Positions 1,670-7,124 of a stretch of 28,124 nucleotides of DNA are shown here, piece after piece; the first letter of the stretch is position 1, and each line of letters begins with the position of its first letter. The stretch comes from a virus. Position numbers and translations under genes: made by a program. The stretch is from positions 1 to 28,124 of IMG/VR virus record IMGVR_UViG_3300018025_000016. One strand, given 5' to 3'. Below the pieces are notes generated by a model. The model made no database searches. It had not been told where the DNA came from and was given only the letters and a program-made list of their open reading frames with translations.

Positions 1670-3922
1670 ATGGACGATATACAAAAAGGTATACAGCTCA
1701 AAAGAATCAAAAAGAATATTGAGAATAGTTACCAGGGCTTCAAAGGTAACTATGAGCGATACACTCGCTTCCGTAATTTCATCTTTGTCACAACCATGGG
1801 CGACTCAGGCAAGAACGTCAACAATGAACTGTTAAGAAACAGTTTAGAGTTCAATATTCTTGAAGCTTACTTGTCGCGCTTAATCGGTGAGTTTGCTAAG
1901 CACGAGCCGTCTATCGAAATCCACACATCTGATGACTATATGCCGGGGGATATGCAGCAAAAGAAACTGCAAGCTGAGCAAATACGTGTGCTTGAGGGCT
2001 TCATGCGCTATACCCTGCAAGAGTCTAACAAGCGCGGAATGGAGAAGGAAGTCTATCGAGACAGTCTATCAGGTGGTTATAGCTCGGTTAAAATCTTTAC
2101 TGATTATGTGGATTCCAAGTCATTCTTACAGCATATCAAGATGCAGCGCACATATGATCAAACGCTGGTTGGCTTTGATTCCTTGGCCGCTGCCCCGGAC
2201 AAATCAGATGGTGACTATTGTTTTGAGATTGTCCCCATGCGCAAAGAAGACTTTGAGCGTGAGTTCCCCGAGGTCGATATCTCTAAGTATAAGTTTCAGG
2301 ATAAATTCATCACTTCCAGTTCCGGTATGGGTTCTTTTGGCCCGTTTAACTGGTCATTCAAAGTAGGCCAAGACCATATCATCATGGTGGCTGATTACTA
2401 TGAGAAGGTTAAGAAGAAGGTCAAATTACATCGACTATCGAACGATGAAAACATGACCGACAAAGAATATAAGAATTTTGTCAAAGCATGGGAAGAAGCC
2501 GGAATATTGGCTCAAGTGCCAATGATAGTTGATACCCGTGAAACTGAAATCACCACGATTAAACGCTTCCAAATGGTGCGCAATGACATTTTGAACGAAG
2601 AAGACACAGATTATCCATGTTTGCCCATCAAGTTCTTTGATGGTAACTCAGTAGTATCCAAAGACGATACAACAGGCTCAAGCTATCAAATGACCAAGCC
2701 TATCTTTTATAATGCTGAAGGTGCTCAGCGGATGAAGAACTTTGCGGGTCAAGTATTGGTCAATGAGATTGAAAACATGCGCCCCGCGCAAATCATTGCC
2801 TCCTTGGAAAGTATCCCGCCTCAATATTTAGATTTGTATCGTAAGCCACAAAACACAACAACCCTTATTTATAATGCTTTCCACAATGGCAACCCTAATG
2901 TGCCCTTGCAGCCTCCCATAATTGCGCCTAGGCAAGGTTTGCCACAAGACGTGATGGAAGCTTTTATGGCTGCTGATACGGTCATCCAAAACGCTTTGGG
3001 TAACTTTGACACCAGCATGACTCAACTCACATCAGCCGAAATGTCAGGTAAGGCTGTGCAGGAAATCACAACGCTGAGTAACGCATCAGCAATGCCCTAT
3101 ATGAATAACTATCTTTTGGGTTTAGAATCATGCGCGCAGATGGTTATAGACATGATGCCAATGTACTACAAGACTCCGCGTTCTATACCTGTGATATCGC
3201 CAGAAGGTAAACGCTCATATGAGATGATTAACCAACCTGGCGGGGTGATGATAGATTTTGAGCCTGGTGCCTTTAAAATCAAAATATCTGCTGGTGTCAG
3301 CTTTGGTCTACAACAGTCTCGCGCACTTCAGCAAGTTATTGCACTCAGTAATGCCATACCTAGCCTTGGTCAATTTATCAATGATGCATGTGGTGACTTG
3401 GTTCTCGACAATGTAGAAATGCGCAATGCTGAAACTATGAAAGTACGCTGGGAAGAATATAGCCAGCAACAAGCTGAAATGAAGCAAAAAGCGATGGAAA
3501 TGCAATCACAACAGCCTAAGATAGACCAACAAATGGTTCAAATCGCTGCTCAGCAAGTCCAGTCAGAAAATCAAGTCGGAATGGCCAAGGTTCAGCAAGC
3601 TGCGCGCTCGGAAGAGATGAAATCAGCGGCTAAGATGGCTGAACTTGAGATGGATAACAAGAAGCTACAAGTCGAAATTGCTAAGATTTTGGCAGAATTG
3701 TCTATTGCGGAAACAAAAGTGGGCATTGAGCAGCAGAAAGCCGATGATGAGCGCATCAATAAGGTTATAGACGCTGCAATCAAAGAGAGTGAACATAAGC
3801 ATGGCTTGGCTGGTAAACAGGCTGACAGGGCCTTAGCTGCTTTGGCTGCTGATAGAGAGCACGAACGCGCAGAATCAGAGGCAGACAGGGCTATGGAGAA
3901 AATAGTGAAAGGTGAAAAATGA
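1670..3922 (+). CDS. Portal protein, P22 type
   Basis: This 750-aa protein is most likely the portal, the dodecameric ring at the vertex through which DNA enters and to which the tail attaches. P22 portal is 725 aa, and the place directly after the terminase is canonical. The first ~580 residues are a mixed alpha/beta body. From about residue 585 to the C-terminus the composition changes to a long Gln/Glu/Lys/Ala-rich helix (for example QQAEMKQKAMEMQSQQ), which matches the extended C-terminal barrel of P22-type portals that projects into the capsid. The start at 1670 is preceded by AGCAGG. The last four bases (ATGA, 3919-3922) overlap the next gene. Assignment rests on position, length and this coiled C-terminus. 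Confidence 0.88.
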   Translation: MDDIQKGIQLKRIKKNIENSYQGFKGNYERYTRFRNFIFVTTMGDSGKNVNNELLRNSLEFNILEAYLSRLIGEFAKHEPSIEIHTSDDYMPGDMQQKKLQAEQIRVLEGFMRYTLQESNKRGMEKEVYRDSLSGGYSSVKIFTDYVDSKSFLQHIKMQRTYDQTLVGFDSLAAAPDKSDGDYCFEIVPMRKEDFEREFPEVDISKYKFQDKFITSSSGMGSFGPFNWSFKVGQDHIIMVADYYEKVKKKVKLHRLSNDENMTDKEYKNFVKAWEEAGILAQVPMIVDTRETEITTIKRFQMVRNDILNEEDTDYPCLPIKFFDGNSVVSKDDTTGSSYQMTKPIFYNAEGAQRMKNFAGQVLVNEIENMRPAQIIASLESIPPQYLDLYRKPQNTTTLIYNAFHNGNPNVPLQPPIIAPRQGLPQDVMEAFMAADTVIQNALGNFDTSMTQLTSAEMSGKAVQEITTLSNASAMPYMNNYLLGLESCAQMVIDMMPMYYKTPRSIPVISPEGKRSYEMINQPGGVMIDFEPGAFKIKISAGVSFGLQQSRALQQVIALSNAIPSLGQFINDACGDLVLDNVEMRNAETMKVRWEEYSQQQAEMKQKAMEMQSQQPKIDQQMVQIAAQQVQSENQVGMAKVQQAARSEEMKSAAKMAELEMDNKKLQVEIAKILAELSIAETKVGIEQQKADDERINKVIDAAIKESEHKHGLAGKQADRALAALAADREHERAESEADRAMEKIVKGEK

Positions 3923-4110: not shown

Positions 4111-4201
4111 GCTTCTTATGATTTTGGGAGCAATTTTACTGCCTGTTCTAGTGGGGTGGGCTGTTGTTTGGTTGATTCGTTCTTTAATAAAGTTTGGTTG
4201 A
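4097..4201 (+). CDS. Possible 34-aa single-pass membrane peptide
   Basis: A short frame starts at ATG 4097 inside the end of the previous gene, with AAGGG (4086-4090) six bases upstream as a plausible ribosome binding site, and stops at TGA 4199-4201. The peptide is one hydrophobic stretch (LLMILGAILLPVLVGWAVVW) followed by a basic end (IRSLIKFG), a normal pattern for a membrane mini-protein. Against it: the frame lies antisense to the end of the reversed gene at 4116-4382, and the antisense of polar coding sequence tends to look hydrophobic. One of the two overlapping frames may not be used. Confidence 0.33.
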   Translation: MTFCELLMILGAILLPVLVGWAVVWLIRSLIKFG

Positions 4202-4382
4202 AATCAAAACTTGCTTTGTCGTTCCATCCATCGCCCAAATCAACAGATATCCGGCGACCAATGAAAGCCTGGGGCTTTGTTTTCATGCATAGATGTCCAA
4301 TCTCAGCCCAGAAGTTGTCTGGGCGTTCTTTGGTAGGCTTTACTGGGCCAATGGCTGACTTAAGAGTGTCTAAAAACTTCAT
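4116..4382 (-). CDS. Hypothetical protein of the reversed cassette (second gene)
   Basis: This 88-aa protein is the distal gene of a two-gene minus-strand cassette that interrupts the late operon. Its start overlaps the stop of the upstream gene as ATGA (4379-4382). The protein is soluble-looking, with a basic N-terminal part (KSAIGPVKPTKERP), an aromatic/Asp-Gly middle (DLGDGWNDK) and a Gln/Lys-rich end. I do not recognise the family. The stop is 5 bases from the stop of the plus-strand gene ending at 4110, with no hairpin terminator between them, so late transcription probably reads through it in antisense. Confidence 0.65.
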   Translation of the reverse strand: MKFLDTLKSAIGPVKPTKERPDNFWAEIGHLCMKTKPQAFIGRRISVDLGDGWNDKASFDFNQTLLKNESTKQQPTPLEQAVKLLPKS

Positions 4383-4780
4383 TCTTCTTCGTGATTTGCC
4401 ATGTAATCGCTAAATTCTTCAACAACTGAAGTTAATGCAGTTGCTGCAACTGCACCTCCAATCGCTCCGCCAATGATATTGGTAAAATCAACTTTTTGTT
4501 GGTCTGAAAACAGTTTTGGCTCTTGGTCATCCATATTGGTAGGCTTGACTTTCATTCCCTCGCAAATCAAATCAATTGCTTTTTCTCTGTCTGCCTCTGC
4601 AATGTTAGAGAAAATGCAATAACGAAGATAGTTAGCTGCTGCTGTTACTTGGATTTCACCATATTCTTGGGGAGTGATTGCTTCTTCGGTCAGTGGCCTA
4701 AAAAACTTTTCATTTGCTGAGCTGAGAGCGTCAAACAAATGAAATATAGCTTTATCGATAACTTGCTTGCGATTTGACAT
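4379..4780 (-). CDS. Hypothetical helical protein of the reversed cassette (first gene)
   Basis: This 133-aa protein starts at ATG 4780, chosen because AGGAA lies at the right distance upstream; a longer frame reaching 4804 lacks this. The body is predicted helical and acidic. Near the C-terminus is a Gly/Ala-rich hydrophobic stretch (NIIGGAIGGAVAATALTSVV) followed by an acidic tail (ANHEEE), which could be a membrane or helix-packing segment. A TAGAAT -10 candidate and a palindrome sit just upstream, so this cassette probably has its own promoter. The function is unknown. The position, inserted between portal and scaffold on the opposite strand, is that of a moron gene. Confidence 0.72.
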   Translation of the reverse strand: MSNRKQVIDKAIFHLFDALSSANEKFFRPLTEEAITPQEYGEIQVTAAANYLRYCIFSNIAEADREKAIDLICEGMKVKPTNMDDQEPKLFSDQQKVDFTNIIGGAIGGAVAATALTSVVEEFSDYMANHEEE

Positions 4781-4804
4781 GAATAATTCCTGGTTAAAAA
4801 TCAA

Positions 4805-4840
4805 ATTCTATCACAGGGTGAACTATTCGATTAAATCGAA
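4805..4840 (-). promoter_or_regulatory. Putative promoter with palindromic operator for the reversed cassette
   Basis: On the minus strand a -10 candidate TAGAAT occupies 4805-4810. The place where a -35 box would sit with a 17-base spacer (4828-4833) falls inside a palindrome, TTCGATTAAATCGAA at 4826-4840, with 7-base perfect arms around one central base. The -35 itself is poor. An operator at that place would let a repressor block the promoter, or an activator replace the weak -35. This is inferred from sequence layout only. Confidence 0.4.
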
Positions 4841-4907
4841 GAGTTGAATTTTTCATGGTTATTTACTGATCAATTAATAGCTATTTGCACAAATCATACC
4901 AATACGG

Positions 4908-4936
4908 TTGATTTCCATAATATTTAACGCTATATT
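4908..4936 (+). promoter_or_regulatory. Sigma70-like promoter upstream of the scaffold gene
   Basis: TTGATT (4908-4913) and TATATT (4931-4936) are separated by exactly 17 bases, a good sigma70 match in an AT-rich stretch. The predicted start of transcription is around 4942-4944, which would give a leader of about 115 bases before the scaffold start at 5060. The promoter would restart plus-strand transcription after the reversed cassette. Confidence 0.6.
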
Positions 4937-4940
4937 ATTA

Positions 4941-5045
4941 GTGCCGCTAACGAGAGCGTAATCTTGGGACAACCTGGCTGAAGGGTTCTACAGTTGTGAC
5001 GGGCACAAATCTCCGGGTCTACCTGTGACACAGGGTTCAAATGTC
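4941..5045 (+). ncRNA. Structured leader RNA before scaffold (candidate cis-regulatory element)
   Basis: The untranslated stretch just after the predicted transcription start can fold. GTGCC (4941-4945) pairs with GGCAC (5002-5006) to close a multibranch loop. Inside are CGCT/AGCG (4945-4948 with 4955-4958) and ACAAC/GTTGT (4969-4973 with 4993-4997). The first two helices share base 4945, so they would compete for that base. A further hairpin CCTGT/ACAGG (5022-5026 with 5030-5034) follows before the GAGG ribosome binding site. The region is GC-richer than the flanking AT-rich promoter. In P22 the scaffold protein represses its own synthesis after transcription, so a control element here would make sense; that link is inference. 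I recognise no named RNA family. Confidence 0.4.
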
Positions 5046-5059
5046 GAAAGAGGTTTTTA

Positions 5060-5785
5060 ATGACGAATGAAGTTTTGGTTAATCAGAATCAGGCTAGTAC
5101 TGATGCTGGGCTTTCTAACGTCGGTACTTCGCAAGAGTACATGACACAGGATAAAGCGAATTACTTGATTACTAAGGCTAAGGAGTCTGCTTATGAGCGC
5201 GGACGCAATGAAGCCTTGGCGAGTCAGCAATCTGCTTCCCACGCACCGGTGAACATGGCAACACTGACTGAGGCTCAGATTATCGATTTAATCGATAAGC
5301 GAAGCGATGAAAAAGTGACTGCCAAGGTTCAGGCCCTTGCTCAAGAGCAATCTAACGCTAACGTAGCCAGACAAATTGTGTCTGAGTATGCAGCGAAGAT
5401 GGCAGAAGGACGCAAGGAATATGACGATTTTGATGAAGTTGTAGGCGCGTTTAATATCCAGAACAGCCCCCAAATGGTGGCCCTGGTTAACAGCGTACCT
5501 GGAACTGAGCATTGCATGTATGAGATGGGTCAACATCCTGAGAAATTCAGTGATATTGAAAACTTGCTAAGGAATGGTCATCGTGTCGCTGCTGAGCGAG
5601 CCATGAAAAAGTTAAGTGATTCGATACTGAAGAATAAGGAAAAGGCACAGACTGCACAAGCAACGAAAGAGCCAAAGCCATTGAGTCAGTTGAAATCCTC
5701 TACCGCGTCCGTTGACGGTAGTTCGACTGTTCCGATGACTCAAAAATCAATGAAAGATGCTATTAGGGCGCTTCGTAAATATTGA
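5060..5785 (+). CDS. Scaffolding protein
   Basis: This 241-aa protein is very likely the internal scaffold that directs coat assembly into a procapsid and then leaves. It is polar, Gln/Glu/Lys/Ala-rich and predicted mostly helical, and it lies directly before the coat gene as in P22 (scaffold 303 aa). The N-terminal ~35 residues are disordered. The C-terminus ends in a short basic amphipathic helix (QKSMKDAIRALRKY), which resembles the basic C-terminal coat-binding helix of P22 scaffold. The GAGG at 5050-5053 supports the ATG at 5060. The gene is preceded by its own promoter and a folded leader. Confidence 0.82.
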   Translation: MTNEVLVNQNQASTDAGLSNVGTSQEYMTQDKANYLITKAKESAYERGRNEALASQQSASHAPVNMATLTEAQIIDLIDKRSDEKVTAKVQALAQEQSNANVARQIVSEYAAKMAEGRKEYDDFDEVVGAFNIQNSPQMVALVNSVPGTEHCMYEMGQHPEKFSDIENLLRNGHRVAAERAMKKLSDSILKNKEKAQTAQATKEPKPLSQLKSSTASVDGSSTVPMTQKSMKDAIRALRKY

Positions 5786-5813
5786 GACAGGGTAACCGAC
5801 AGTAAGAGACCGG

Positions 5814-5832
5814 CAACGAAGTTTGATCGTTG
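5814..5832 (+). promoter_or_regulatory. Hairpin upstream of the coat ribosome binding site
   Basis: CAACGA (5814-5819) and TCGTTG (5827-5832) form a perfect 6-bp stem with a 7-base loop, ending just before the TGGAG that serves the coat start at 5847. It could stabilise the coat mRNA or set coat translation relative to scaffold. It lies in the 61-base gap between scaffold and coat, which has no other feature. Confidence 0.35.
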
Positions 5833-5846
5833 ATGGAGACTTTTAC

Positions 5847-7124
5847 ATGGTACCTGCAAATATTTTACAACAAGTTGTGACCTGGAACATGGCCGACTTG
5901 GAAATCTTCCAAAACAACTGTTGCGTCGTTTCTACGGCCAATACTCGTTTTCGTGACCCAGAAAACTTCCCGGGCAATTTAGGCTCCAGTGTCAGCTACG
6001 AAACCCCGCCTCGTTTTGTGTCTCAAGATTCCTTGGTTGTTAACTTCCAAGAAATCCAACAGAACTCACGTACATTGACCGTTAACAAACAAGAAAACGT
6101 GTCATATGCTGGTACTGCTGAACAAATCGTATTCAACAATCTTGAAGAATACACCACACGTCTTGGCGACGCCGCAATGGCAGAGCTGGCTTCTAAAGTC
6201 GAATCAGACGTTACAACCCTCTTTGAAACCATTCCTTATCGTTTCTTCGGTAACGGTACTAACCCAATCAACTCTGCCCAACAATTGGCTCAGATGATTG
6301 CTAATTTCCGTTCATACTCAAGTGCCCCAGGCATATTGAAAGTCTATCTTGACCTTCAATCCATTCCTGCGATTGTTTCTACCATGCAAAACCAATTCAC
6401 TCTTGAGCGAAACAATGAAAACGCTATGAGCTGGATGGTGGGTAACTGGGCTGGGGTCGAGTTTTATAGCTCCAACTTGCTGCCAATTCACTTCTCAGGT
6501 ACTGTTGGTAATGCAACTTATCCTTCAAGCGTATTGACTGTTCTTAGTACCAATGACCCTACAGGTAACAATATTACCCAAATAACTTGGTCTGGTGCGG
6601 GCACTAGTGATGTGAACGCTATTAAGGCATATGACCATTGCCAATTCGTTAACTATGGTGGGGCAACTGTTCCTTACTGGCTAACCTGGACTGGCCACAA
6701 CCAAACCAGCTTGCCTGTACAGTTACAAATCACTGCTGATGCGGCTTCAGATGGTTCAGGTCATGTGACAACCAGTATCTATCCTGCCCTTTGTGCTACT
6801 GATGGCAATATGAATCAGAACATCCCAATCAACATCGTTGCGGGCATGACTGCACAGTTTGTGCCTTCAGCTAAAGTGGGTTGTGCTGTGTCTGATAATG
6901 CTTTGTATGTGGCTATGCCTAAGCTGCCAAGTACTTATCCTTTCCCATCCTCTACGGCTACCGATGAAGATACCACTGTGTCAGTACGTTTGTATTATGG
7001 TGTTATTCCATTCCAAAACGTTTACGGCTGGACAAGGGACGTGATTTGGGGCAAAGACATGGTTCCACAAAACTCCATGGCAATGTTCTTCCCATTGACC
7101 CAAAACAACGGCATTGGTATGTAA
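5847..7124 (+). CDS. Major coat (capsid) protein, P22-like
   Basis: This 425-aa protein is the expected major capsid subunit (P22 coat is 430 aa). It follows the scaffold gene and precedes the gp4/gp10-like connector genes. The ATG at 5847 is chosen because GGAG lies about 9 bases upstream; an in-frame TTG at 5823 would put the start inside a hairpin. The N-terminal part contains a Gln/Asn-rich arm and the helix LEEYTTRLGDAAMAELASKV around residues 95-115, typical of the long spine helix of HK97-fold capsids. The centre (about 215-350) is rich in Gly/Ser/Thr and beta-prone, consistent with an inserted domain like that of P22 coat. I infer the HK97 fold from layout; no sequence identity can be computed here. 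Confidence 0.85.
   Translation: MVPANILQQVVTWNMADLEIFQNNCCVVSTANTRFRDPENFPGNLGSSVSYETPPRFVSQDSLVVNFQEIQQNSRTLTVNKQENVSYAGTAEQIVFNNLEEYTTRLGDAAMAELASKVESDVTTLFETIPYRFFGNGTNPINSAQQLAQMIANFRSYSSAPGILKVYLDLQSIPAIVSTMQNQFTLERNNENAMSWMVGNWAGVEFYSSNLLPIHFSGTVGNATYPSSVLTVLSTNDPTGNNITQITWSGAGTSDVNAIKAYDHCQFVNYGGATVPYWLTWTGHNQTSLPVQLQITADAASDGSGHVTTSIYPALCATDGNMNQNIPINIVAGMTAQFVPSAKVGCAVSDNALYVAMPKLPSTYPFPSSTATDEDTTVSVRLYYGVIPFQNVYGWTRDVIWGKDMVPQNSMAMFFPLTQNNGIGM

What the first reader, a model, noticed from the sequence alone, without database searches (positions are those of the whole stretch)
4941..5045. Structured leader RNA between a sigma70-like promoter and the scaffold gene
The predicted transcript starts with GTGCC, which pairs with GGCAC 60 bases later and encloses two further helices, followed by another hairpin before the ribosome binding site. 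The region is untranslated, GC-richer than its surroundings and about 100 bases long. P22 scaffold controls its own synthesis after transcription, so this could be a translational operator for scaffold. It matches no RNA family that I can name.
Basis: partly seen in the sequence, partly recalled or inferred. Interest (0 to 1): 0.62.

Follow-up and report, generated by a model that had tools for sequence, protein, structure and literature searches.

The report
Pseudoknot train before phage scaffold gene
The start of this phage's scaffold messenger RNA folds into a row of four tiny knotted structures ending at the ribosome landing site, a widespread RNA element in related viruses that probably sets how much capsid scaffold is made.

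Summary
The GTGCC/GGCAC closing helix is no better than chance: one of five shuffles has such a pair, nested folding is no more stable than shuffles, and it does not covary. Positions 4945-5045 fit four consecutive H-type pseudoknots, the first starting at the predicted transcript start, the last ending 4 nt before the scaffold Shine-Dalgarno. In 7 leaders of the window's clade, 17 of 31 pairs change on both sides (0/500 shuffles). A second clade gives 13 of 29 pairs in 24 leaders. Pseudoknot-chain scores are raised in 113 unique scaffold leaders (mean z 2.86; five control sets -0.05 to 1.20). Sequence-only scans for the last pseudoknot put 64 of 70 sites upstream of a coat gene, 5 on contig ends, 1 elsewhere. 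No Rfam family matches. Best explanation: a cis-acting translational control element of scaffold synthesis, perhaps an autoregulatory operator. Structure is strongly supported; control of translation is inferred from position; the binding partner is unknown.

The parts
4908..4936 (+). sigma70-like promoter, -35 TTGATT and -10 TATATT, 17 nt apart; predicted transcript start about 4943
   Evidence: TTG and CTAT.TT conserved in 7 of 7 clade leaders; start site inferred, not mapped
4945..4966 (+). pseudoknot 1: stem 4945-4948/4955-4958, loop-tail helix 4951-4954/4963-4966
   Evidence: helices 1 and 2 (82% and 96% of cells paired, 2 pairs with both-side changes in each); T4965C in L001, L002 and L004 turns G-U into G-C
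4973..4994 (+). pseudoknot 2: stem 4973-4975/4982-4984, loop-tail helix 4977-4980/4991-4994
   Evidence: helices 3 and 4 (95% and 86% of cells paired; 2 of 3 and 4 of 4 pairs with both-side changes)
   Evidence: helices 5, 6 and 7 (86%, 64% and 68% of cells paired; the least certain of the four)
5022..5045 (+). pseudoknot 4 (last): stem 5022-5026/5030-5034, loop-tail helix 5027-5029/5043-5045
   Evidence: helices 8 and 9 (89% and 86%); family-wide loop/tail contingency
5050..5053 (+). Shine-Dalgarno GAGG of scaffold, 4 nt after pseudoknot 4
5060..5785 (+). scaffold protein gene
   Evidence: phrog_8865, E 3.4e-09
5802..5846 (+). nested hairpin that pairs part of the coat Shine-Dalgarno (GGAG 5835-5838); possible scaffold-to-coat coupling element
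   Evidence: (z -3.10 for 5786-5850)

Best explanation
The scaffold gene's 5' leader is a train of small H-type pseudoknots (four in the window) that fills the space from the predicted transcript start to the ribosome binding site. Shown by comparison: both helices of the pseudoknots covary, and the element is tied to scaffold genes. Inferred: it is a cis-acting translational control element. The last pseudoknot sits inside the expected ribosome footprint, and in some clades its 3' strand runs into the Shine-Dalgarno, so stabilising it should hinder initiation and melting it should allow it. The upstream pseudoknots are then extra binding or nucleation sites. The likeliest trans-factor is unassembled scaffold protein (or coat), giving feedback on the scaffold supply; coat output may be coupled, because the coat start region lies in a hairpin just after the scaffold stop. 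My estimates: tandem-pseudoknot structure 0.93; translational control of scaffold 0.6; scaffold or coat as the binder 0.35.
For: Covariation of the four-pseudoknot structure in 7 clade leaders: 84.3% of cells paired, 17 of 31 pairs changed on both sides, 0/500 shuffles, slid partners 29-47%. Second clade, 24 leaders: 95.6%, 13 of 29 pairs, 0/500, slid 17-43%. Chain score of the window leader 34.1 against 17.5 +/- 5.5, 0 of 300 shuffles; 113 leaders mean z 2.86 against -0.05 to 1.20 in five control sets. Last-pseudoknot loop and tail go together: CAC/GTG 53, GAC/GTC 19, AAC/GTT 3 of 93 anchored rows, never CAC/GTC or GAC/GTG. Tied to scaffold: 64 of 70 pattern sites upstream of a coat homologue; 39 of 39 covariance-model matches at scaffold leaders. 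Ends 5-20 nt before the start codon in 78 of 78.
Against: No experiment. Nested folding gives no signal, and by raw pseudoknot energy the leader ranks only about 11th of 5602 stretches of the window. 27 of 113 leaders have z of 2 or less, some with mis-picked starts, but also L020 (1.47) and L044 (1.02). Pseudoknot 3 pairs in only 64-86% of cells. In the window the Shine-Dalgarno itself lies outside the last pseudoknot. Few phylogenetically independent changes at the last loop-tail pair. A regulator is not identified. L230 and L145 break the loop-tail rule.
Confidence: 0.55

Rival explanations
1. Transcript protection: a row of compact pseudoknots at the extreme 5' end shields the structural-gene mRNA from 5'-end-dependent decay, like a stabilising 5' UTR or an exonuclease-resistant RNA.
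For: In the window the first pseudoknot begins at the predicted transcript start (4945 against about 4943); tandem pseudoknots recur in viral protective RNAs (recalled).
Against: The position held constant in relatives is that of the last pseudoknot relative to the start codon (5-20 nt); protection alone would not need that.
Confidence: 0.15
2. Ligand-sensing riboswitch: tandem pseudoknots bind a metabolite or ion and hide or free the ribosome binding site.
For: Last pseudoknot nearly invariant in 24 of 24 clade 2 leaders, loops included; A before the stem in 76 of 78 (partly fixed by the anchor) and A before the tail strand in 67 of 78.
Against: Tied to one structural phage gene rather than to metabolic or transport genes; loop-tail sequences differ between clades; no Rfam riboswitch match.
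Confidence: 0.12
3. Antitermination: the leader acts on RNA polymerase like HK022 put RNA, helping it read through the long structural operon.
For: Lies at the 5' end of the transcript of the structural genes.
Against: Constant spacing of the last pseudoknot to the start codon; pseudoknots rather than two plain hairpins (recalled put architecture).
Confidence: 0.06
4. One reading: a GTGCC/GGCAC closing helix enclosing further helices.
For: The pentamers are complementary, and the MFE of 4941-5062 contains the helix.
Against: 19.8% of shuffles have such a pair; 57% of cells paired and no both-side change in 7 leaders; it competes with pseudoknots 1 and 3, which covary.
Confidence: 0.02
5. Chance: no conserved structure; the complementarities are accidental.
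For: Nested folding gives no signal (z +1.22 in the window, mean -0.34 over 113 leaders), and raw pseudoknot energy is not unique in the window.
Against: Two clades each beat 0/500 shuffles and all slid controls; 113 leaders against controls.
Confidence: 0.02

Closest known systems
T4/T2/RB69 gene 32 leader pseudoknot (autoregulatory operator of gp32)
   Same: H-type pseudoknot in a phage 5' leader that serves translational control of the gene behind it (PMC3014915, passages read)
   Different: One pseudoknot 67 nt upstream with an unstructured A+U-rich run at the ribosome binding site there; here 3-4 in tandem up to the ribosome binding site, and a scaffold gene instead of a DNA-binding protein
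Small pseudoknot riboswitches (preQ1, SAM-II)
   Same: Pseudoknot abutting the ribosome binding site (recalled)
   Different: No Rfam match; tandem array; phage scaffold gene
P22 scaffold (gene 8) post-transcriptional autoregulation
   Different: No such leader known to me in P22; four cultured P22-like relatives have portal-scaffold gaps of only 38-99 nt
Tobamovirus upstream pseudoknot domain
   Same: Row of consecutive small pseudoknots in an untranslated region with a role in translation (abstract of PMC4683447 in listing; number of pseudoknots recalled)
   Different: 3' UTR of a plant RNA virus; no relation claimed

Membership tests
T4-type gene 32 pseudoknot operator | leader of the gene for the single-stranded DNA-binding protein | tested here: not met
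   the gene is a scaffold protein
T4-type gene 32 pseudoknot operator | single pseudoknot far upstream (67 nt), unstructured A+U-rich run to the ribosome binding site | tested here: not met
   four pseudoknots reach to 4 nt before the Shine-Dalgarno; feature from PMC3014915
T4-type gene 32 pseudoknot operator | binds the protein it encodes | not testable with these tools
   needs binding assays
any Rfam 15 family | match at the gathering score | tested here: not met
   (only a tRNA elsewhere in L012); permissive searches searches gave nothing relevant
pseudoknot riboswitch | ligand-dependent change | not testable with these tools
   no ligand known
translational operator | conserved structure at a fixed, short distance from the start codon | tested here: met
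   5-20 nt in 78 of 78 leaders scored
translational operator | changes translation of the gene | not testable with these tools
   needs reporters
put antiterminator RNA | two-hairpin element acting on RNA polymerase | not tested
   only architecture and position compared, from recall

The most novel reading that the evidence does not exclude
A previously undescribed phage RNA class: a cooperative train of three to four pseudoknots that senses unassembled scaffold (or coat) and tunes scaffold translation, and through a locked coat start region the coat supply too, so that one leader sets the whole capsid-assembly budget.
Probability: 0.33. Interest if true: 0.85.

Novelty: new variant of a known kind. 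Interest (0 to 1): 0.72.

Why it matters
[quoted passage not shown] If the functional reading holds, this would be a second, widespread and architecturally different case (113 unique leaders), tied to capsid assembly. It turns the question of how P22-like phages keep scaffold and coat in balance after transcription into a defined RNA that can be probed, mutated and offered to scaffold protein. It also shows that nested folding (z about +1) can miss a strongly conserved RNA made of pseudoknots.

Tried and rejected
Thermodynamic support for the leader: none with nested folding. tRNA-like reading of GGGTTCAAAT: no tRNA or tmRNA. Known RNA families: none. Scaffold-protein search in cultured phages: no match; coat searches reached only distant Vibrio, Shewanella and Thalassomonas phages with short portal-scaffold gaps. 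A first MAFFT alignment of 30 last pseudoknots (A7) shifted several rows, the window's among them, and was not used for pair counts. The tree-based count of independent changes was too weak alone. The clade 2 covariance model did not reach the window, L021, L032, L034 or L035: 39 of 72 sources matched, 33 did not. The claim that the coat Shine-Dalgarno is specifically locked is only moderately above shuffles (0.81 against 0.67), so it is kept as a side observation. Host inference from the contig flanks of L066 was left unfinished. Not in print as far as searched: (open-licence PMC only); of the papers listed, passages of PMC3014915, PMC8022706 and PMC6316719 were read, and only the listings with abstract starts of the rest.

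Rows dropped before counts: near-identical leaders were counted once. L036, L022, L038 and L039 were left out of A8 as duplicate or truncated. In one search, 12 loci without a scaffold ORF and 9 with too little upstream sequence were dropped. At least 17 starts that I judge mis-picked (by eye) were kept. In one search, 20 of 113 leaders did not match the anchor (the window among them); of the 93 that matched, 14 were not a listed complementary type (mostly false anchors; L230 TAC/GTT and L145 AAC/GTA are real exceptions, L133 and L136 fit another register), and L153 was dropped as a false anchor, leaving 78. The seven rows of A8 and the 24 of A9 were chosen by clade from 113 unique leaders, so pair counts were made on 31 of 113.

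Full report
WHAT WAS CHECKED. The window is a 28,124-base virus record with a P22-like head module: terminase 90-1658, portal 1670-3922, scaffold 5060-5785 and coat 5847-7124 (PHROG matches). A sigma70-like promoter (4908-4936) leads into an untranslated scaffold leader of about 117 nt (transcript start inferred). The leader is GC-richer than its surroundings (53% against 28.5% upstream). The complementary pentamers GTGCC and GGCAC exist, but 19.8% of shuffles contain such a pair, and the nested fold is no more stable than shuffles (z +1.07 and +1.22).

FINDING RELATIVES. The scaffold as query found near-copies only. Coat alignments reached 461, 342 and 520 relatives in viral contigs, of which the best 80 each were kept, plus one contig binned as Desulfosporosinus. 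From 231 sequences the coat was located in 223 and the scaffold ORF in 211, giving 113 unique leaders.

THE STRUCTURE. Reading the leaders side by side showed a recurring module: a short stem, a loop whose 3-5 nt pair with bases a few nucleotides after the stem, and A-rich spacing, that is, an H-type pseudoknot. The window leader parses as four such modules: 4945-4966, 4973-4994, 4995-5015 and 5022-5045. An energy-based chain score gives 34.1 for the leader against 17.5 +/- 5.5 for shuffles (0 of 300 as high). Over 113 leaders the mean z is 2.86, and 69.9% beat at least 99 of 100 shuffles. Controls: upstream of coat 0.24 (2.7%), inside scaffold -0.05 (0.9%), inside coat 0.44 (7.1%), 281-400 nt upstream 0.15 (0.9%), reverse complement of the leader 1.20 (14.2%). 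In the 86 leaders with z above 2 the best chain has four pseudoknots in 61, three in 24 and two in 1, a count that can include chance modules. Against this, by raw score the leader ranks only about 11th of 5602 overlapping stretches of the window, behind GC-rich coding sequence.

COVARIATION. On an alignment of seven distinct leaders of the window's clade the four-pseudoknot structure pairs in 84.3% of cells, with 17 of 31 pairs changed on both sides; no shuffle of 500 reaches any measure, and sliding the partners drops pairing to 29-47%. Both kinds of helix, stem and loop-tail, contribute. Pseudoknot 3 is the weakest (64-86%). In a second clade of 24 leaders 13 of 29 pairs change on both sides and 95.6% of cells pair; there three pseudoknots and one plain hairpin are modelled, and the last pseudoknot is almost invariant, so it says little by itself. 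Family-wide, the loop triplet of the last pseudoknot and its tail partner go together: CAC/GTG 53, GAC/GTC 19, AAC/GTT 3, GAC/GTT 3 (one of them a false anchor), GAT/GTC 1, with no CAC/GTC or GAC/GTG. The tree shows few independent changes at that one pair (6 and 5; one independent pair on well-supported branches), so the case rests on many pairs rather than on this one.

WHERE IT OCCURS. Two exact-pattern scans of 2.9 million viral contigs, based only on the last pseudoknot, hit 38 and 31 contigs. Of 70 sites, 64 lie 500-1400 nt upstream of a coat homologue, 5 are on contigs that end too soon, and 1 is at an unrelated gene. A covariance model of clade 2 searched 72 sources (551 kb, both strands): 39 matches at E up to 1, all on the + strand at scaffold leaders; 33 sources, the window included, had no match. 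Four cultured P22-like relatives have no room for the element (portal-scaffold gaps 38-99 nt).

HOW IT LIKELY WORKS. The distance from the end of the last pseudoknot to the start codon is 5-20 nt in 78 of 78 leaders scored, inside a ribosome's footprint (established knowledge); in several clades the 3' strand runs into the Shine-Dalgarno (GTGAGG, GTGG). In the window it ends 4 nt before GAGG. This constant position, with more variation further upstream, points to control of translation initiation. A protective 5' structure, a ligand sensor and antitermination remain possible.

COAT START REGION. Between the scaffold stop and the coat start, nested hairpins are strong (mean z -3.14 in 101 loci; 71% below -2), against -0.05 for the scaffold start region (81 loci) and -1.84 for the next gene (84 loci). 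The coat Shine-Dalgarno is paired with mean probability 0.81, against 0.67 when the upstream part is shuffled. This is compatible with translational coupling of coat to scaffold but does not prove it.

KNOWN OR NEW. No Rfam family matches. Literature searches found no report of such an element (open-licence papers only). The nearest functional precedent is the T4 gene 32 pseudoknot, which a review calls possibly the only viral example of a pseudoknot in translational autoregulation (PMC3014915, passages). I rate it a new variant of a known kind: pseudoknot leaders are known; a train of three to four that ends at a scaffold gene's ribosome binding site is not, as far as I could find.

Noticed in passing
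window 5786-5849: The region between scaffold and coat folds into a strong nested hairpin that pairs part of the coat Shine-Dalgarno; the same holds in most of 101 relatives (mean z -3.14), which suggests that coat translation is coupled to scaffold translation.
   Followed up: partly
window 4521-5121 against L006: L006 is identical to the window for 599 nt across the scaffold leader, with dense changes just before 4521 and in the scaffold N-terminal part after 5121, which looks like mosaic exchange around a fixed leader.
   Followed up: no
L265 7133-7200 (reverse strand): The last pseudoknot is present twice in a row in one leader, and L025 has two module pairs, so the train seems to grow and shrink by duplication.
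   Followed up: no
L297, L298 (record of L066): A related phage lies in a 51.5 kb record whose ends carry bacterial-type genes (dehydrogenase, topoisomerase IB, transposase, integrase, by reading only), so it may be an integrated prophage and could name a host.
   Followed up: partly
window 4116-4768, minus strand: Two small minus-strand genes without PHROG match sit between portal and the scaffold promoter; L021 has none there and L012 has others, while the leader stays with scaffold.
   Followed up: no
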